The translations under genes and the position numbers were made by a program. Source: Methylobacterium sp. 2A (GTDB lineage Bacteria > Pseudomonadota > Alphaproteobacteria > Rhizobiales > Beijerinckiaceae). From it: a stretch of 64,000 bases of DNA. Location: assembly GCF_009806555.1 (NCBI RefSeq), contig NZ_VUOK01000014.1:1-64000 (forward strand). Reading direction: 5' to 3'. Numbering within the stretch: position 1 is the first letter of the stretch; every line of letters starts with the position of its first letter. Below, piece after piece: positions 26,175 through 35,096 of this stretch. The notes beneath the pieces are model-generated. The model made no database searches, was not told the DNA's origin, and saw only the letters and a program-made list of their open reading frames with translations.

Positions 26175-27023
26175 ATGGCCCACGCGCCCCTCGTGTCCCC
26201 CGATTGGCTGCACGACCGTCTGACCGCCCCCGACCTCGTGACCCTCGACGCCTCCTGGTATCTCCCGGCCGCCGGCCGGGATCCCGAGGCCGAGTTCCGC
26301 GCGGCCCATATCCCCGGCGCCCTGCGCTTCGACCTCGACGCCATGAGCGATACCGAGTCGAGCCTGCCGCACATGCTGCCCCGCCCGGAGGTCTTCGCCG
26401 CGCGGATGCGGGCGCTCGGCGTCGGCGACGGCCAGCAGATCGTGGTCTATGACGGGATGGGCCTGTTCTCGGCGCCGCGGGTCTGGTGGATGCTGAAGGC
26501 CTTCGGGGTGCGCGACGCCCTGGTGCTCGACGGCGGTCTTCCGGCCTGGGTGGCCGCGGGCTACCCCACCGAGGAGGGCGAGCCGCATCCGCGCGAGCGC
26601 CGGCACTTCACCGCCCGGCTCGACCACGGGGCGGTGGCGGATGCGGACGACGTCGCCCGCGCCCTGGCGAGCGGCTCGGCTCAGGTGGTGGATGCCCGCT
26701 CGGCCACGCGGTTCCGCGGCGAGGAGCCGGAGCCGCGCCCCGGCGTCCGCCCCGGCCACATGCCGGGCGCCTGCAACCTGCACTACGCGGCGCTGCAGCG
26801 CGACGGCCGGATGAAGAGCCCGGAGGAACTGGCCACAATCTTCGCGGAGAACGGCGTCGATCCGGACCGGCCGATCGTGACCACCTGCGGCTCTGGGGTG
26901 ACCGCGGCCATCATCGCGCTCGCCCTGGAGACGATGGGCCGGCCCGCCCGCGGCCTCTATGACGGCTCCTGGTCGGAATGGGGCGCCGACCCGAACCGGA
27001 CGGTGGTGACCGGAACTCCTTGA
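26175..27023 (+). CDS. sseA: 3-mercaptopyruvate sulfurtransferase
   Basis: A 282-residue two-domain rhodanese. The active-site loop is Cys238-GSGVTA, the form typical of mercaptopyruvate sulfurtransferases rather than thiosulfate ones. The N-terminal domain (1-130) is the inactive copy; SRF-like RSATRF..EEPEPRPG precedes the second domain. It transfers sulfur from 3-mercaptopyruvate to thiols or cyanide in the cytosol. The ATG at 26175 starts right at the domain; the longer in-frame extension is Arg/Pro-rich and unlikely. Confidence 0.92.
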   Translation: MAHAPLVSPDWLHDRLTAPDLVTLDASWYLPAAGRDPEAEFRAAHIPGALRFDLDAMSDTESSLPHMLPRPEVFAARMRALGVGDGQQIVVYDGMGLFSAPRVWWMLKAFGVRDALVLDGGLPAWVAAGYPTEEGEPHPRERRHFTARLDHGAVADADDVARALASGSAQVVDARSATRFRGEEPEPRPGVRPGHMPGACNLHYAALQRDGRMKSPEELATIFAENGVDPDRPIVTTCGSGVTAAIIALALETMGRPARGLYDGSWSEWGADPNRTVVTGTP

Positions 27024-27661: not shown

Positions 27662-28486
27662 TCAGGCGGCCCGCACGGTGCGCCGCTTGTCGGCGGCGCC
27701 CCACTGCATCAGCCCGACCATCACGGCGATGGTGGCGACGTAGACAAGCCCCTGCAGGGCGGTCGGCCGGTCGGTATAGCCCACGAGGGCGTGCAGGATC
27801 CGGCCCGGCCAGGAATTCTCGGCGATCACGCCGGAGCTGTTCCAGAGGGTGTGGCCGAGGATGTCGACCACGCCGGCATTGGCCAGGAACTGGGCAGCCT
27901 GTGAGGCGAGGCCCGCGGCCAGGAAGGTGATCAGCACGCTCGTCACCGCGAACACGTAGCGGCTCGGGATCGAGGCCAGCCCGAAATACGTCACCGCCGA
28001 GAGCAGCGCGCCCGCTCCGATGCCGGCCACGGCGCCGAACTGGATATCCGCCCCCGAGGTGCCCGAGGCCACGAGGCCGTAGAGGAACAGCACCAGCTCG
28101 GCGCCCTCGCGCAGGATCGCGGCGCCGATCACGATGGAGAGGGCGGCGGCCTCGCGCTCGCCCGAGCGCACCGCCGCGCCGGCCGCGTGCAGCTCGCCCG
28201 CCAGCTCCTTGCCGTGCTTGCTCATCCAGGTGTTGTGCCAGACCAGCAGCAGCACCGCGACGATCAGCACGGCGGCGTTCAGAATGTCCTGCCCGCTGCC
28301 CTCGAAGGCGTCGGAGATTTTTTCTGCGAAGAGGGCCACGAGGGCGGCCCCACCCAATCCGCCCGCGATGCCCAGGAGCACCCAGCGCATCCGGCCGGGA
28401 ATGCCGCGGGTCGCCGCCAGCACGATCGAGATGATGAGGCCTGCCTCGATGACTTCGCGGAAGGCGATGACGAAGGCGCCGATCAT
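27662..28486 (-). CDS. ftrC: Iron permease, FTR1 family (FtrC-like)
   Basis: A 274-residue inner-membrane permease with about seven hydrophobic segments. The two iron-binding REXXE motifs are present: Arg10-Glu11..Glu14 (FREVIEAG) and REGAE at 126-130. It imports iron delivered by the periplasmic partners in FtrABCD systems. The Met at 28486 is taken as start since it begins exactly with the first membrane helix. It is the last gene of the ftr cluster, 49 bases after the polyferredoxin gene. Confidence 0.9.
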   Translation of the reverse strand: MIGAFVIAFREVIEAGLIISIVLAATRGIPGRMRWVLLGIAGGLGGAALVALFAEKISDAFEGSGQDILNAAVLIVAVLLLVWHNTWMSKHGKELAGELHAAGAAVRSGEREAAALSIVIGAAILREGAELVLFLYGLVASGTSGADIQFGAVAGIGAGALLSAVTYFGLASIPSRYVFAVTSVLITFLAAGLASQAAQFLANAGVVDILGHTLWNSSGVIAENSWPGRILHALVGYTDRPTALQGLVYVATIAVMVGLMQWGAADKRRTVRAA

Positions 28487-28535
28487 GGCGGTCTCCAGAA
28501 GTTGCGAGATGTCGCGAGATGTCGCGCGGACCGCG

Positions 28536-29969
28536 CTACCAGACCCAGAACATGAGGACCCAGTTGACGACCGACAGGGCGGCCGCACCGGCGATGCAGG
28601 TTGTGGCCGCGGCCCGCCGGATACCGGCCGCGCTGAGGCCCGCCACCCGCCACGCGAGCCAGACGCTCCACAGGCTCGCCCCGGCGAGCAGGGCGGCGCG
28701 CATCTCGGCCACGTGGGGAATCACGATGCCGTCGCCGCGCAGGAATGTGACGGTAAGCGCCGAGAGACCCAGGAAGACGCCGCAGCCCGCCACCGGGATC
28801 AGCGTCTGCGTCAGGTGGTGGAAGCGCCGCAGCGACCAGCCCCCGAGGGACAGGGTCGCCAGCGCCACGATCCCCGAAAGGGTGAGGCCGAGGATCACCG
28901 TCGCCGCGCCGATATAGGCCAGGAGCAGCCCGCCATCGAGCAGGGTCATGACGTCGTTGCGGTCGGGGTAGTTCGTCAGCACGAACCAGGGCGCGGACAT
29001 CTCCAGCGGCCACGTGATCCCGCGGTCGATGAGCCAGGTGGCGGCCCATTGCTTGGCCTCGACGTACCAGGGGCTCGCCGACCATTGGAAGGCGCCCACC
29101 GCCAGGGCCAGCATGCCGAACAGGATCAGCACGGTCTGGTCGAGGTCCGGCTCGGTGCCGGCCACGTGCACGATCTCGTGGTTGGGCGAGCGCAGGGCGA
29201 GGCGCACCGCCCCGCGATGGCCGCTGCACCGCCCGCACATGTGGCAGGCCCCGGAGCCGCGCATCGTCCTCACCGGCACGAGCGGCGCGCAGTTGAACGC
29301 CTCGGTCCCCCGGGCGGGCTTGGGCGAGGCCGCCCAGGCGGCGTGGTCGACCTGGAAGCTCACGGGTGCGAGCTTCGACAGCACCGCGAAGACGCCGTTG
29401 ACCGGACAGAGGTAGCGGCACCAGACCCGCTTGTTGCGCCCATAGAGCAGGCCCACCACGATCGCCGCGCAGGTCGAGCCGCCGAGGACCGCGAGGACCG
29501 GCTTCGGATAGCCGTACACGCTGGTCAACTGGCCGTAGACCGTGGTGCCGGCAAACGCCAGGAACGGCCAGCCCTGCCACGTGATCCAGCGCGGCACCGC
29601 ATAGCCGCGGCTCCAGCGGCTGGCGACCTCGCTCAGCGCGCCCTCGGGGCAGAGCACGCCGCACCACGCCCGGCCGACCAGCACCATGCTGAGCAGCACG
29701 AACGGCCACCAGATCCCCCAGAAGGCGAACTGCGCGGCGAGCGTCAGGTTGGTCCAGATATGGGCGGCGTTATCGGGCAGCGGCAGCAGGGCGGGCACGA
29801 TCACCAGCACCGCGTAGATGGCGATGATCAGCCACTGCACGGATCGGATCACCCAGCCATAGCGCCGCATCCCATCGCCGAACGCGGCAAGACGCGCGTC
29901 GATCCAGGCGCCGCGCGCGGGACGAGAGGCGGCCGGCAGGACTACAGGCGCTGTCGTCGACGCGCTCAT
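28536..29969 (-). CDS. ftrD: Membrane 4Fe-4S protein (FtrD-like polyferredoxin)
   Basis: A 477-residue inner-membrane protein with about nine hydrophobic segments and three Cys clusters: C103-X3-C107-P (RAWCGVLCPEGA), C184-X3-C188-P (VWCRYLCPVNG) and C242-X2-C245-X2-C248 (ACHMCGRCSG). This is the NosR/FtrD type of membrane ferredoxin thought to carry electrons in ferrous iron uptake. Its start overlaps the stop of the ftrB gene (ATGA). Assignment rests on the flanking P19, cupredoxin and FTR1 genes. Confidence 0.88.
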   Translation of the reverse strand: MSASTTAPVVLPAASRPARGAWIDARLAAFGDGMRRYGWVIRSVQWLIIAIYAVLVIVPALLPLPDNAAHIWTNLTLAAQFAFWGIWWPFVLLSMVLVGRAWCGVLCPEGALSEVASRWSRGYAVPRWITWQGWPFLAFAGTTVYGQLTSVYGYPKPVLAVLGGSTCAAIVVGLLYGRNKRVWCRYLCPVNGVFAVLSKLAPVSFQVDHAAWAASPKPARGTEAFNCAPLVPVRTMRGSGACHMCGRCSGHRGAVRLALRSPNHEIVHVAGTEPDLDQTVLILFGMLALAVGAFQWSASPWYVEAKQWAATWLIDRGITWPLEMSAPWFVLTNYPDRNDVMTLLDGGLLLAYIGAATVILGLTLSGIVALATLSLGGWSLRRFHHLTQTLIPVAGCGVFLGLSALTVTFLRGDGIVIPHVAEMRAALLAGASLWSVWLAWRVAGLSAAGIRRAAATTCIAGAAALSVVNWVLMFWVW

Positions 29970-30307
29970 TTGGCCACCAGGGTCGCCTTGGCGTCGGGGT
30001 GGAAATCGTCGAACACCTGATAGGTGCCGGCATCGAGGGTCCGGAACACGATCGCCGAGGTCGAACCCGCCGCCAGCGCCTTCTCGCGCTTCAGCTCCGT
30101 GCTCTCGAACTCGACGGGCGACTGCCCGGTATTCGAGATCTCCAGCTTGAACCGGGTGTTGGCCGGCACCTCGATCACCGCCGGCAGGATCACGCCGTCG
30201 CGCATCTCCACCTTGATCACCGGCATGTCGTCCGCCCGCACGGACCCGGCCGCAGAAGCGGCGAGGAGCAGGGCAGCGAGTGCGGCGATGCGCGGCGGGC
30301 GGGTCAC
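29966..30307 (-). CDS. ftrB: Periplasmic cupredoxin-like protein (FtrB-like)
   Basis: A 113-residue exported protein: signal peptide at 1-25 (cleavage near VRADD) and a cupredoxin fold (VIKVEMRDGVILPAVIEVP, then GTYQVFDDFHPDAKATL). The usual copper Cys is lacking, as in FtrB/EfeO-type domains. In FtrABCD it is proposed to help oxidise Fe(II) before transfer to the permease. It lies 16 bases after the ftrA gene and is coupled to ftrD. Confidence 0.85.
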   Translation of the reverse strand: MTRPPRIAALAALLLAASAAGSVRADDMPVIKVEMRDGVILPAVIEVPANTRFKLEISNTGQSPVEFESTELKREKALAAGSTSAIVFRTLDAGTYQVFDDFHPDAKATLVAK

Positions 30308-30323: not shown

Positions 30324-30887
30324 TCAGTAGGCGCCCTTCTTGCCGACGCCGGCGAAGGTGAAGTCCTGCACGACGTCGAACGGCTCGAACCACGGGCCGA
30401 CCCCAGTCTCCTTGTCGACGTGACGGCCGAAATGGCTGTCCTTGCCGGGGGGCGCGACCGTGACCGTCAGGCGATAGCGGCCGGGGCCGAACAGCTTGAC
30501 GTTGTCGCCGTAATGCGGCCCGTCATTGGCGACCATCGGCATCAGCATCCCGGCGACCTTCTGGTCGGTCGGCTTGTCGCCGTCGAGCTTCACCGCCTCG
30601 AAATGCACGTCGAGGGCCGGCACCCAATCGCCCTCGGCGAAGCCGTTGCGGTTGTCCTTGGCGGCGCGGATATCCGTCTCGAGGTGGATGTCCGACTGCG
30701 CGGCGTCGCGCATCATGCCGGCGGGCTCCATCTCGATCGGCTGGAGGTAGACCGCCGCGACCTCCAGGCCGTTGCGGGTCACGTGCGGGCCGATCGGCAC
30801 CTCCTTGGCCGCTGCCGATCCCGCGGTCGCGAGAGCGGCGGCCACGACAAGGCCGCGGAGGAGCGATGGGGCGGTTGAGGCACGCAT
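30324..30887 (-). CDS. ftrA: Periplasmic iron-binding protein, P19/Tp34 family (FtrA-like)
   Basis: A 187-residue periplasmic protein of the P19/Tp34 family. Signal peptide at about 1-27. Candidate metal ligands are the Met/Glu pair in EMEPAGM, His in SDIHLETDI and His in NDGPHYGDN, arranged as in Campylobacter P19. The C-terminal beta domain carries GPGRYRLTVTVAPP. It is the first gene of ftrA-ftrB-ftrD-ftrC. A four-residue longer start (MCCDM) exists; the second Met is the more usual N-terminus. Confidence 0.88.
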   Translation of the reverse strand: MRASTAPSLLRGLVVAAALATAGSAAAKEVPIGPHVTRNGLEVAAVYLQPIEMEPAGMMRDAAQSDIHLETDIRAAKDNRNGFAEGDWVPALDVHFEAVKLDGDKPTDQKVAGMLMPMVANDGPHYGDNVKLFGPGRYRLTVTVAPPGKDSHFGRHVDKETGVGPWFEPFDVVQDFTFAGVGKKGAY

Positions 30888-31251
30888 GTCGCAGCACATA
30901 AACGCTCACGGCAGAACTTCAAACAGGAATCGCACCACCATCAAATAATAACAATTCTAATCTGAAGGCCTTAGCGGGACCGCATTGCGTATTTGCCAGT
31001 CTCAGTCTTGCTCACCGGACATCGTAATCTGTTGCCAACAAGAATTTTCACAGGTCTGTGGCCAACCGGATCTTGACCAGTGCGTAAATCTCGGGATCGT
31101 CACGCAACTGCCACGCTGATGGCCGAGAACGTGCCTGAGGATCGGAAGCGGAGAGGCCGCTCATGCGACATTGCGCGCCGCACCGGTGTGCCATGGCTTG
31201 CGCGGGAGCAAAGCGGGTTTTAGCAGAAGCTATATTGTTGCTGTGAGTCGT
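30888..31251. other. Non-coding gap with AT-rich divergent promoter
   Basis: Separates the ftr operon (minus) from the fused porin gene (plus). The part at about 30935-30965 is AT-rich (AAATAATAACAATTCTAATC), unlike the surroundings, and is a likely place for an iron-responsive promoter of ftrA. I see partial resemblance to Irr/Fur-type AT-rich boxes but no clean consensus. Confidence 0.4.
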
Positions 31252-33408
31252 ATGAGAACCCGTTCCGCGCGCCCGGCTCCGACGAAACACGCTGCCCGGC
31301 CCGTGGTTCTGACCCAAGTGGCAGCGCTCATGCTGGCGCCTGCCGTCATCGCGCCCGCCGGCGCAGCCGACCTCGCGGTGCCGCGTCCGGCGGCGGAGGC
31401 GTCCGCCTACACCGACTGGTCGGGGGGCTATATCGGTCTCGAAGGCAGCGCGGGCGGTTCCTACGGGGCCTACAGCTTCGGTCCGACGACGATCGGCGGG
31501 CGGCCGGTGCCCGCGTTCAAGAGCGGTGACTCGACGGGCCGCAGCGACCAGGGGCGGAACGCCACCACGGCTGTGGGCGGGCTGTTCGGCGGCTGGAATT
31601 GGCAGACGGGCCCCTGGGTCTACGGCGTCGAGGCCAGCGTCGACGCGGCGAACCTGAAGCGGCCCGTTCCCTCGACCATCGCGGGCTTCGGCTACGCGGA
31701 CATGGACCCGGCCTTCAACATCGTGCGCGCGAAGACCGATCTCTACGGCACCTTGCGCGCGCGGCTGGGCTACAGCTTCGACCGGTATCTGATCTACGGC
31801 GCCTTCGGCCTCGCCGGCGCCGACGCGCGCTTCCTCGCGACCTATCCGGATCTCGATGCGGGCGGCCAAGCCACGGCGCAGCGGGAACTCGGCTATCTCG
31901 GCTTCACCCTGGGCGCGGGGGTGCAATACGCCGTCAGCGACCACCTCGCCCTCGGAATCGACTATCGCTACATCGATCTCGGCGGCAGCCGGCGCTTTCC
32001 GCTGGGCCTCGTGCCCGGCGATGCGGGTGGCCCGGTCTCGACCCGGGCGAGCTTCACCTCGAACCAGATGTTCCTGCGGCTGATGTGGTTTCCCGACGGG
32101 CTGAAGGTGCCGCCCGACCCGGACGAGACCGCCCCGCACGATCCCGACAACGGCGATACCGGCCGCTTCTCGCTGCACGGACAGACCACACTGATCGCGC
32201 AGGGGGTCCCAGGCTTCCGCTCGCCCTACGAGGGCGCGCAGAGCCAGATCCCGCATCAGGCCCGGCAGACCACCACGGCCACGATCTTCCTCGGGCTCAA
32301 GCTCACCGACACCACGGAAGTCTACTACAACCCCGAATTCAGCCAGGGCTTCGGCCTGTCGCGCACGCTCGGCGTGGCCGGCTTCGTCAACGGCGAGGCG
32401 CAGAAGGCCGGCGCCCCGTTCCCGAAGCTGCGCTCGAACCGCTACTACGTGAAGCAGACGATCAACCTCGGCGGCGAGACCGTGGAGGTGCCGGACGGGC
32501 CGAACCAAGTCGCCACCCGCTACGATGCCGAGCGGATCACGCTGATCGCCGGCAAGTTCGCCCTGGGCGATTTCTTCGACGGCAACATCTACGCGCACGA
32601 TCCGCGGGTCGACTTCTTCAACTGGTCGCTCTGGGGCTCCTCGGCCTGGGACTTTCCGGCCAACCTGCCGGGCTTCACGCAGGGCGTCTACGCCGAATAC
32701 AACCGGCCCGAATTCGCGATCCGCGCCGCCTATACGCAGGTGCCCAAGGAACCGTCGAGCGACGTGCTCGACCCCCGGGTGTTCCGCCGCGCCGGGCTGA
32801 ACGCGGAGTTCGAACAGCGCTACGTCCTGCCGGGGCTGGACCAGCCGGGCAAGCTGCGGTTCGGGCTGTTTTCCAATGTCGGCGTCTCGGCCAACAACCG
32901 GGAGGTTGTGACGCTGACGCAGCTCGGCGCCTTCGACGACATCAACGACGCGGTGGCGGCGACCCGGCGCCCCCGCCGCAAGACCGGCGGCTACATCAAT
33001 CTGGAACAGGCCCTGACGCCCGAACTCGGCCTGTTCGCCCGGGCCAGCCTGAACGACGGCCGCACGGAGAACATCTCCTTCACCGATATCGACCAGAGTT
33101 TTTCGGGCGGCCTGTCCCTGAAGGGCAAGGCCTGGGACCGGCCGGACGACACGATCGGGATCGGCGCCGCGATGAACGGGCTCTCGCCCTCGCACCGGGC
33201 GGCCTTCGCGGCGGGCTTCTACGGGCTGCTGATCGGCGACGGGCGGCTCAATTACGGCACCGAGCGGGCGCTGGAGACCTACTACGCCCTGAACCTGACC
33301 AAGTTCGTGACCCTGACCTTCGACTACCAGTTCATCGACAACCCCGGCTACAACCGCGACCGCGGCCCGGCGCACTTCTTCGCCTCGCGGCTGCACGCGG
33401 ATTTTTGA
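31252..33408 (+). CDS. Fused outer-membrane protein: Omp25-type barrel plus OprB-type carbohydrate porin
   Basis: A 718-residue outer-membrane protein. After a signal peptide (cleavage near AGAAD at ~38) comes the Omp25/Omp31-like small-barrel domain (about 50-275; DWSGGYIGLEGSAGGSYG, GGLFGGWNWQTG, GYSFDRYLIYGAFGLA, ending in LMWFPDG). A Pro/Asp linker (KVPPDPDETAPHDPDNGD) leads to a second barrel (about 295-718) with the OprB blocks (LHGQTTLIAQGVPGFRSPYEG, YNPEFSQGFGLS, FDYQFIDNPGYNRDRGP). OprB porins are normally separate ~450-residue proteins. The C-terminal Phe is typical for barrels. The start at 31252 gives a clean leader. Confidence 0.85.
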   Translation: MRTRSARPAPTKHAARPVVLTQVAALMLAPAVIAPAGAADLAVPRPAAEASAYTDWSGGYIGLEGSAGGSYGAYSFGPTTIGGRPVPAFKSGDSTGRSDQGRNATTAVGGLFGGWNWQTGPWVYGVEASVDAANLKRPVPSTIAGFGYADMDPAFNIVRAKTDLYGTLRARLGYSFDRYLIYGAFGLAGADARFLATYPDLDAGGQATAQRELGYLGFTLGAGVQYAVSDHLALGIDYRYIDLGGSRRFPLGLVPGDAGGPVSTRASFTSNQMFLRLMWFPDGLKVPPDPDETAPHDPDNGDTGRFSLHGQTTLIAQGVPGFRSPYEGAQSQIPHQARQTTTATIFLGLKLTDTTEVYYNPEFSQGFGLSRTLGVAGFVNGEAQKAGAPFPKLRSNRYYVKQTINLGGETVEVPDGPNQVATRYDAERITLIAGKFALGDFFDGNIYAHDPRVDFFNWSLWGSSAWDFPANLPGFTQGVYAEYNRPEFAIRAAYTQVPKEPSSDVLDPRVFRRAGLNAEFEQRYVLPGLDQPGKLRFGLFSNVGVSANNREVVTLTQLGAFDDINDAVAATRRPRRKTGGYINLEQALTPELGLFARASLNDGRTENISFTDIDQSFSGGLSLKGKAWDRPDDTIGIGAAMNGLSPSHRAAFAAGFYGLLIGDGRLNYGTERALETYYALNLTKFVTLTFDYQFIDNPGYNRDRGPAHFFASRLHADF

Positions 33409-34332: not shown

Positions 34333-35055
34333 CTACAGCTCGCTCCCGGTCCCGAGTTCCATCGCCGTCGCCCCAAAGATCTCCTCGAAGGTGGCCCGGA
34401 GCTGCATGTCCACCTCGGCCAGGGTCACCGGCAGGCCGAGATCGACGAGGCTCGTCACGCCGTGCTGGCGCACGCCGCAGGGCACGATCCCGTCGAAATG
34501 CGAGAGGTCCGGCTCGACGTTCAGGCTGATGCCGTGAAAACTCACCCAGCGGCGCACCCGGATGCCGATCGCCGCGATCTTGTCCTCGACGTCCGGCCCC
34601 TTCTCCGGGCGGCGCACCCAGACGCCGACCCGGTCCTCCCGGCGCTCGCCGCGGACGTTGAAGGCCGCGAGCGTCGCGATCAGCCACGCCTCCAGGCTCG
34701 CCACATAGGCGCGCAGGTCGCGGCTGCGGCGGTCGAGGTCGAGCATCACGTAGGCGACCCGCTGGCCGGGCCCGTGATAGGTGTACTGCCCGCCCCGCCC
34801 GGTCGCGTGGACCGGGAACCGGTCCGGCGCCACGAGATCCTCCGGCCGGGCCGAGGTCCCGGCCGTGTAGAGCGGCGGGTGCTCAAGCAGCCAGACGCAT
34901 TCGGGCGCCGCGCCGCGGGCGATCGCCTCGGCCCGCGCCTCCATCCAGGCGATGGCGGCGTCGTACGCGACGGGCGCATCGCTGACCCGCCACGCCACCG
35001 GCCCCGCGACCGGATCGGAGCCGGGCCGCTTCGGGAAGGCGTGCGGGCCGACCAT
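34333..35055 (-). CDS. lipB: Lipoyl(octanoyl) transferase
   Basis: A 240-residue cytosolic enzyme that moves octanoate from acyl carrier protein to lipoyl domains. The signature [13 protein letters not shown] lies at 87-99, Lys159 in DKIAAIG and the catalytic Cys193 in GIVPCGV. A TTG seven codons upstream (35076) is an alternative start; neither start has a strong ribosome-binding sequence, and the ATG at 35055 is preferred. Confidence 0.93.
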
Positions 35056-35096
35056 GAGGCGCGTCGCGTTTACCAAGGCTTCACCATCCTGCGTCG

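What the first reader, a model, noticed from the sequence alone, without database searches (positions are those of the whole stretch)
31252..33408. Outer-membrane fusion of a small Omp25-type barrel and an OprB-type porin
Two complete barrel-like regions are joined by a Pro/Asp linker (about residues 275-295). Such porins usually have one barrel. The product might form two pores or have one barrel act as an adhesin or anchor, next to an iron-import operon that diverges from it.
Basis: partly seen in the sequence, partly recalled or inferred. Interest (0 to 1): 0.55.

Follow-up and report, generated by a model that had tools for sequence, protein, structure and literature searches.

The report
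Two-barrel porin under manganese control
A Methylobacterium outer-membrane protein really is two complete barrels on one chain, and its gene carries the same manganese-sensing switch as the cell's manganese importer, so it is probably a manganese entry channel rather than the sugar or iron porin its labels and neighbours suggest.

Summary
Window 31252-33408 encodes one intact 718-aa protein: an 8-strand Omp25/OmpA-type barrel (about residues 58-279), a linker (280-305) and a 16-strand OprB-type barrel (306-717). Folds of the whole protein and of the first barrel alone, with structure matches (OmpA Z 16.5; OprB 4gey Z 32.6), support two barrels. It is no assembly error: this genome has four such genes, and 98 of 111 genus genomes match.

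The iron reading is not supported: the divergent P19/FTR1 operon adjoins the porin in 30 of those 98 genomes. Instead, 17 nt before the ATG lies a palindrome (31219-31234) found at three places in 6.4 Mb; the perfect copy stands before mntH, opposite a divergent mntR. E. coli K-12 has the same palindrome before mntS and its core before mntH. In the 22 other genomes whose sites were printed, mntH carries it in 22 and the fused porin in 15 of 20.

Best reading: an MntR-controlled outer-membrane channel for Mn2+, MnoP-like in role. Binding, transport and the small barrel's role are inferred. Two-barrel proteins are a known kind; this is a new variant.

The parts
31252..33408 (+). CDS of the two-barrel outer-membrane protein, 718 aa
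31252..31368 (+). export signal region, about residues 1-39 (cleavage site not predicted by a tool)
   Evidence: sequence as read; mature region set at residue 40 for folding
31423..32088 (+). first barrel, 8 strands, residues about 58-279, Omp25/OmpA type
   Evidence: Pfam OMP_b-brl; AF2 whole and alone, pLDDT 87.3; OmpA Z 16.5, OprG 16.4, OmpW 15.5
32089..32166 (+). linker, residues about 280-305, Pro/Asp rich, variable between lineages; no second signal peptide seen by eye
32167..33402 (+). second barrel, 16 strands, residues about 306-717, OprB type
   Evidence: Pfam OprB; AF2; P. putida OprB 4gey Z 32.6, 368 aligned
31219..31234 (.). MntR-type palindrome TTTAGCAGAAGCTATA, 17 nt before the ATG
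   Evidence: same site before mntH in this genome and in E. coli K-12
30324..30899 (-). P19-type periplasmic Fe2+ protein (Pfam Iron_transport), divergent neighbour; lineage-specific
   Evidence: adjacency
29966..30307 (-). cupredoxin of the iron operon
28536..29969 (-). membrane 4Fe-4S (Fer4_5) protein of the iron operon
27662..28588 (-). FTR1 iron permease of the iron operon (start codon uncertain)
26178..27023 (+). rhodanese-domain gene: upstream flank shared with loci that lack the iron operon
34333..35076 (-). LplA-B_cat (lipoyl/octanoyl transferase type) gene: downstream flank shared with other Methylobacterium

Best explanation
It is a two-barrel outer-membrane channel of the manganese-uptake regulon. 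When Mn2+ is plentiful, MntR bound at 31219-31234 blocks transcription; when Mn2+ is scarce the gene is derepressed together with mntH. The C-terminal 16-strand OprB-type barrel lets Mn2+ (and probably other divalent cations) cross the outer membrane, and MntH takes it from the periplasm into the cell. Both barrels have an even strand number, so both ends and the linker face the periplasm and the chain enters the membrane twice. The 8-strand barrel is most likely too narrow to conduct and serves as a tethered partner of the pore (placement, oligomer packing or gating). Shown by computation: one intact chain, two barrels by prediction and fold match, the fusion conserved, an operator-like site shared with mntH, an mntR gene in the genome. 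Inferred: binding by MntR, the direction of control, Mn2+ passage, and the role of the small barrel.
For: Two barrels. Conservation. Regulon: TATAGC-N4-GCTATA with at most 1 mismatch occurs at 3 places in 6.4 Mb of this genome, one 17 nt before the porin ATG and the perfect one 20 nt before mntH; a first-order simulation of 6.4 Mb with the window's base statistics gave 0. That mntH is divergent from a 153-aa DtxR-family gene, E. coli MntR match 193.9 bits; 10 of the 22 other mntH loci fetched also show an MntR match. E. coli K-12 has the exact palindrome between mntS and mntR and the core ATAGC-N4-GCTAT 16 nt before mntH. In the 22 other genomes printed the site is at an Nramp gene in 22 of 22 and at the fused porin in 15 of 20 that have one. 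In two genomes without a fused-porin match (G008, G1191) a single-barrel OprB follows mntH and carries its own site. In other lineages Nramp lies within 2.5 kb upstream of the fused porin in 9 of 80 loci and a CNNM/CorC-type transporter within 2.5 kb downstream in 14 of 80.
Against: Five of 20 porin-bearing genomes in that subset, 14 of 28 named Methylobacterium/Methylorubrum loci and the three own-genome paralogues have no site at the porin. None of the 52 other named loci (mostly Bradyrhizobium) has it; 38 of 52 carry a different conserved element, which was not tied to mntH. The site itself is not rarer than a control: the same pattern read backwards gave 17 places in this genome, so the argument rests on where the sites lie. 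A third site, with one mismatch, lies 91 nt before a gene that I take by eye for ndk. The porin's site has one mismatch. The Pfam name is carbohydrate-selective porin. No transport, binding or expression was measured.
Confidence: 0.6

Rival explanations
1. It is an iron(II) channel that serves the divergent P19-cupredoxin-Fer4_5-FTR1 operon.
For: Divergent and adjacent in 30 genus genomes and in 7 of 80 named loci. A single-barrel relative in another family is also divergent from a cupredoxin-FTR1 pair (L201).
Against: 68 of 98 genus genomes with the porin lack that neighbour: 50 have no P19 match and 18 have it elsewhere; porin and P19 do not co-occur more than expected (48 both, 50 porin only, 10 P19 only, 3 neither; odds ratio 0.29, Fisher p 0.08). 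The site before the porin is MntR type, and a different conserved block lies on the operon side.
Confidence: 0.13
2. It is an ordinary carbohydrate (or general small-solute) OprB porin, and the manganese control is secondary.
For: Pfam family name, and the closest solved structure is the P. putida porin OprB. A trehalase/GH15-type gene lies near one relative (L064), a weak Sugar_tr match near another (L069), and a two-domain ABC transporter of unknown substrate adjoins the porin in 7 of 80 loci.
Against: Among the neighbours that were identified, cation transporters recur and no sugar ABC or PTS system was seen; the neighbour survey is partial (searches show 25 of 54 and 25 of 38 families). 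A paper on cyanobacterial OprB-domain porins links most of them to salt and copper, and cites Slr1908 for inorganic iron, though it found no relation to iron in Anabaena (PMC9705863, passages).
Confidence: 0.15
3. The protein is mainly structural or adhesive: the pore is incidental and the small barrel anchors or displays loops.
For: 8-strand barrels of the OmpA/Ail/OmpX fold often are not pores (fold matches; function from general knowledge).
Against: The larger barrel has a complete 16-strand porin fold and most of the invariant columns; control by MntR fits uptake better.
Confidence: 0.08
4. One continuous 24-strand barrel.
For: The inter-barrel error map was not available; closure was not measured on coordinates.
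Against: The first barrel folds alone with pLDDT 87.3 and matches OmpA from first to last strand; the second matches OprB over 247-679 of the model; linker length varies; single-barrel relatives of the second part exist.
Confidence: 0.03
5. Assembly error or chance joining of two genes.
For: A few copies in other genomes are broken or split (G162, G1189, G1195, L096).
Against: Same architecture in many separate assemblies and four times in this genome.
Confidence: 0.01

Closest known systems
OprB carbohydrate-selective porin (PF04966; P. putida OprB, PDB 4gey)
   Same: Second barrel: Pfam OprB over residues 349-718, structure match Z 32.6 over 368 residues
   Different: Only 19% identity to 4gey; carries an extra N-terminal barrel; regulon and several neighbours point to metal ions rather than sugars
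Omp25/Omp31-type small barrels (PF13505 OMP_b-brl)
   Same: First barrel: Pfam hit and 8 strands; stand-alone relatives in the same genome
   Different: Here it is not a free protein but the N-terminal part of a porin
Multi-barrel outer-membrane proteins (Solan et al. 2021, PNAS; GfcD)
   Same: Two barrels on one chain. GfcD is predicted as 12 + 13 strands (PMC11494523, passages)
   Different: GfcD has a periplasmic domain between the barrels and is tied to capsule export; here 8 + 16 with a short linker. Whether Solan et al. list this very combination could not be checked: the paper is not held; only its title in reference lists was seen
MnoP of Bradyrhizobium japonicum (blr0095)
   Same: Outer-membrane Mn2+ channel needed at low Mn (PMC9334652, passage; PMC3449104, passage); its control together with mntH is recalled from Hohle et al. 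2011, not held
   Different: Here the predicted regulator is MntR. The MnoP sequence was not obtained, so homology is untested; PMC6011978 (passages) aligned MnoP with Porin_2 proteins as an outgroup, which leaves its family open
MntR regulon (E. coli mntH, mntS)
   Same: Same palindrome and an MntR homologue beside mntH
   Different: E. coli has no porin in it as far as I recall; here an outer-membrane channel is added
Slr1908 iron porin of Synechocystis
   Same: Porin for an inorganic metal, cited in a paper on OprB-domain porins (PMC9705863, passages)
   Different: Cyanobacterial protein; not compared in sequence here

Membership tests
OprB family (PF04966) | Score above the curated cut-off over most of the profile | tested here: met
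   156.4 bits vs 22.9, profile 22-372 of 372
OprB family (PF04966) | 16-strand porin fold like P. putida OprB | tested here: met
   16 strands in the model; 4gey Z 32.6, rmsd 3.0, 368 aligned
OprB family (PF04966) | Selectivity for sugars | not testable with these tools
   needs transport assays
Omp25-type small barrel (PF13505) | Score above the curated cut-off | tested here: met
   42.5 bits vs 28.7
Omp25-type small barrel (PF13505) | Eight-strand closed barrel | tested here: met
   8 strands, pLDDT 87.3 alone; OmpA Z 16.5 from residue 3 to 231; closure judged from the alignment, not from coordinates
Multi-barrel outer-membrane proteins | Two or more complete barrels in one polypeptide | tested here: met
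   by prediction and fold match:
Multi-barrel outer-membrane proteins | This 8+16 combination already listed in Solan et al. 2021 | not testable with these tools
   paper not held
MntR regulon | MntR operator in the promoter | tested here: met
   1 mismatch to TATAGC-N4-GCTATA, 17 nt before ATG; E. coli sites found by the same scan
MntR regulon | MntR protein encoded in the genome | tested here: met
   193.9 bits to E. coli MntR; Fe_dep_repress and Fe_dep_repr_C
MntR regulon | Binding and Mn-dependent repression | not testable with these tools
   needs gel shift and expression data
MnoP | Sequence homology to blr0095 | not tested
   sequence not obtained; locus tag seen in PMC6011978 only
MnoP | Shared control with mntH | tested here: met
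   shared operator-like site; the regulator differs (MntR; Mur in B. japonicum is recalled)
MnoP | Mn2+ passage in proteoliposomes | not testable with these tools
   experiment
Iron-uptake partner of a P19-FTR1 (FtrABCD-like) operon | Conserved linkage to the operon | tested here: not met
   30 of 98 genus genomes with the porin

The most novel reading that the evidence does not exclude
A tandem-barrel outer-membrane channel dedicated to manganese, in which the small barrel is a working part (gate, metal-capture site or oligomer organiser) of the OprB pore. It would belong to a mis-named 'carbohydrate porin' branch that acts as a general outer-membrane port for inorganic cations, beside which different inner-membrane cation transporters (MntH/Nramp, CNNM/CorC, CorA, FTR1, KUP) have been placed again and again.
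Probability: 0.3. Interest if true: 0.78.

Novelty: new variant of a known kind. Interest (0 to 1): 0.6.

Why it matters
How scarce divalent metals cross the outer membrane is still an open matter; few metal-specific porins are known. If right, a protein of a family named for sugar porins is the outer-membrane arm of manganese uptake in Methylobacterium, in a two-barrel form that gives a natural test of what tandem barrels are for: single-barrel relatives of the same pore exist for comparison, and in two genomes without the fusion a single-barrel OprB holds the same place in the predicted MntR regulon.

Tried and rejected
Single 24-strand barrel, assembly error, and iron-operon partnership: rejected or lowered for the reasons under the rivals. 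One origin of the fusion: on the OprB-part tree (80 rows, 60 fused) the fused rows need at least 4 changes of state, 2 of them forced by well-supported branches; holding all fused rows in one clade is rejected (p-AU 6e-5; 0.0016 after dropping the split copy L096_single and the long rows L201, L189 and L183, when 2 changes remain). The tree of the first barrel against 25 stand-alone relatives also needs 4 changes, 2 forced. So gain, loss or transfer happened more than once; which is unresolved (quick trees, midpoint root for drawing).

Rfam on seven related loci gave only Rhizobiales-2 RNA and chrB-b at the gathering threshold, no manganese riboswitch; the window itself was not scanned. No PDB sequence relative by phmmer up to E 0.1; profile hits up to E 1 were only OmpA (0.019) and NspA (0.081). 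A consensus sigma-70 promoter scan of 30880-31300 found nothing. A recalled DtxR signature pattern found no gene; the search with E. coli MntR then did. No paper on this protein was found in searches (OprB phrase + Methylobacterium: 0; OprB + Bradyrhizobium + outer membrane + porin: 7 listed, none read; OprB + PF13505: 1 listed, not read); these cover only the held library. The MntR box in print was sought (passages of two papers) without success and was checked on E. coli DNA instead; that mntS and mntH are MntR targets rests on recall and on a reference title seen.

For the site subset, only rows printed could be used: the first 22 genomes after the window's own, G130 cut short. I fetched 35 non-porin site loci (22 with an Nramp ORF) and left 22 one-mismatch sites in those genomes unexamined. 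Of the other 13 loci, two hold TonB receptors (L238 by Pfam; L257 by eye), ten I assigned by eye to one 300-aa family (L249 has a DUF6662 hit; L255 gave no Pfam hit), and one (L237) has no clear gene.

Full report
What is there. Window 31252-33408 (+) is one open frame of 718 residues. Pfam finds an outer-membrane small-barrel domain at 47-244 and an OprB domain at 349-718, both above their curated cut-offs. There is one signal-like region at the N-terminus and, by eye, none before the second barrel, so the two parts should be exported as one chain (sequence).

Two barrels, not one. The predicted structure of residues 40-718 (mean pLDDT 80.5, pTM 0.76, 63 aligned sequences) has eight long strands, a linker and sixteen long strands. 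Over model residues 247-679 it matches Pseudomonas putida OprB (4gey) with Z 32.6, 368 aligned residues and 19% identity, above all other rows (Z about 23 and less, among them a second OprB crystal form). The first part folded alone reaches pLDDT 87.3 with eight long strands and matches OmpA (Z 16.5, 170 aligned), OprG (16.4) and OmpW (15.5), each from first to last strand. Even strand numbers place both ends of each barrel, and the linker, on the periplasmic side (general knowledge of such barrels). Strand closure was not measured on coordinates and the error map between barrels was not available.

How common it is. This genome has four full-length copies (the others 65-67% identical) and two OprB proteins of ordinary length. 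In the genus, 98 of 111 genomes match at E 1e-100 or better (a few copies are broken, e.g. G1195, G1189, G162). In a sample of 199 genomes of the family, 38 have a match that includes the OprB part, by my count of the printed rows; one is a fragment and one is frame-shifted. All 80 named loci kept by one scan align over both parts: 28 Methylobacterium/Methylorubrum, the rest mostly Bradyrhizobium and kin; 79 of the 80 were put to profiles of both barrels and all 79 have both in one frame. That scan favours full-length matches. Across the order 31 of 397 genomes have this OprB branch; four of them have single-barrel members with frames of 458-488 aa. In the phylum-wide sample 31 of 398 genomes match, and the 14 outside the order all have frames of 434-548 aa, two of them weak partial matches; those fetched as loci have no first-barrel match. 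The linker differs in length and letters between lineages. Trees reject a single clade of all fused forms, so the joining was gained, lost or moved more than once.

The iron operon is a lineage-specific neighbour. The divergent genes are P19-type Fe2+ protein, cupredoxin, Fer4_5 membrane protein and FTR1. They flank the porin in 7 of 80 named loci, the seven nearest ones. In the genus 58 of 111 genomes have a P19 match; 30 have it divergent and adjacent to the porin, all with porin identity of 85% or more; 18 have it elsewhere; 50 have the porin and no P19 match; 10 have P19 and no porin match. In L051, L052 and L055 the rhodanese gene lies directly before the porin with no operon between, and in L052 the lipoyl-transferase-type gene follows, as in the window. 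The operon therefore looks inserted in one clade.

The manganese operator. Aligning the promoter of near relatives showed a palindrome just before the porin: TTTAGCAGAAGCTATA at 31219-31234, 17 nt before the ATG. It is present in relatives without the iron operon. With at most one mismatch, TATAGC-N4-GCTATA occurs at three places in the 6.4 Mb genome. A first-order simulation of the same size gave 0, but the pattern read backwards gave 17, so what counts is where the sites lie. The perfect site stands 20 nt before the ATG of an Nramp gene (422 bits), and on its other side lies a 153-aa DtxR-family regulator that matches E. coli MntR at 193.9 bits. The third site, with one mismatch, is 91 nt before a gene I take by eye for ndk and may be chance. 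To test the identity of the site I scanned two stretches of E. coli K-12: the exact palindrome lies between mntS and mntR, upstream of mntS, and the core ATAGC-N4-GCTAT lies 16 nt before mntH, inside the small annotated frame ypeD. By sequence it is thus the MntR operator; binding was not tested.

How consistent the regulon is. Of the 22 genomes whose sites were printed (the window's own left aside), all 22 have a site at an Nramp gene; 10 of these 22 loci also show an MntR match within the stretch fetched. Of the 20 with the fused porin, 15 have a site directly upstream of it (coordinates). The five without are G1187, G1195, G1196, G1197 and G1201. In G1187 and G1196 a TonB receptor carries a site; in G1195 and G1197 a 300-aa secreted protein does; in G1201 a single-barrel OprB beside mntH does, with one mismatch (partly by eye). 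In G008 and G1191, which have no fused-porin match, mntH is followed by a single-barrel OprB with its own site. Of the 28 named Methylobacterium/Methylorubrum loci 14 have the site with at most 2 mismatches. The own-genome paralogues have none.

Other lineages. The 52 other named loci lack the MntR-type site. Instead 38 of 52 have a longer conserved element, TTGCTATTGCGAATTA-n-T-n-GCAA (at most 4 mismatches in its first 16 letters). In ten such genomes each porin site is found, and the only two further sites lie in unrelated sequence. It resembles the repeated hexamers of Bradyrhizobium Fur/Mur sites (recalled, not tested). Nramp lies within 2.5 kb upstream of the porin in 9 of 80 loci and further away in one, although the farther zone is about three times as long. 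A CNNM/CorC-type transporter lies within 2.5 kb downstream in 14 and further in 8. CorA (L057), a cation-efflux protein (L101), P-type ATPases (L064, L097) and KUP (L057 and one own paralogue) also occur near the porin. RND pumps were not enriched near (6 loci near, 10 far). Other neighbours are unrelated to ions, and the survey of neighbours is partial. Many loci share ancestry (L081 and L083, for instance), so these are not independent counts. One own paralogue lies behind an Nramp and a Na/phosphate transporter gene.

Reading. The best-supported account is an outer-membrane channel derepressed with mntH when manganese is scarce, feeding the periplasm for MntH, in the way described for MnoP of Bradyrhizobium (passages in PMC9334652 and PMC3449104). 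Whether MnoP is the same protein family could not be checked. The role of the 8-strand barrel is open; I think a tethered partner of the pore most likely. Two-barrel proteins are a known kind (title of Solan et al. 2021 seen in reference lists; GfcD passage), so this is a new variant with an unexpected regulon rather than a new kind.

Noticed in passing
L247 4370-5791 (G008), L246 (G1191), L253 (G1201): Single-barrel OprB (Pfam 234 bits in L247) directly after mntH, each with its own MntR-type site: a single barrel in the same place in genomes whose fused porin is absent or has no site.
   Followed up: partly
L235, L242, L244, L249, L252, L255, L258, L261, L262, L267: A secreted protein of about 300 aa (SEHLFGFTEGSDLG-like stretch; L249 hits DUF6662) with an MntR-type site shortly before its start in several Methylobacterium: likely a further member of the regulon. 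Grouped by eye.
   Followed up: partly
L238 1-2022 (-), L257: TonB-dependent receptor behind an MntR-type site in genomes whose fused porin lacks the site: a possible TonB-dependent manganese route.
   Followed up: no
upstream of the porin in L072-L123: Conserved element TTGCTATTGCGAATTA-n-T-n-GCAATAA in 38 of 52 loci, practically unique in the ten genomes searched; perhaps a Mur/Fur operator.
   Followed up: partly
window about 30956-30973: Block ATAACAATTCTAATCT on the iron-operon side of the intergenic region, largely conserved in the relatives that have the operon; perhaps an Irr or other iron-responsive site.
   Followed up: no
L201 3242-6426 (G689): Single-barrel relative divergent from cupredoxin and FTR1 genes: a second case of this porin branch beside an iron permease.
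   Followed up: partly
L096 7454-9646: A split copy: a first-barrel ORF directly followed by an OprB ORF, next to an intact fused gene; broken gene or unfused pair, in a metagenome-assembled genome.
   Followed up: no
L081 and L109: Fused porins on contigs titled Dyella and Sphingomonas whose surroundings look like those of Bradyrhizobium loci (L083, L080); transfer or mislabelled contigs.
   Followed up: no
L074 9609-9712, L088 5705-5806: Rhizobiales-2 small RNA matches (Rfam) in the neighbourhood of the porin; in L074 shortly upstream of it.
   Followed up: no
Bradyrhizobium-type loci between the creatininase gene and the glutamate-synthase-type gene: The gene directly after the porin is exchanged between strains: CNNM transporter, two-domain ABC permease plus ATPase, TauE, FAD hydroxylase or nothing.
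   Followed up: partly
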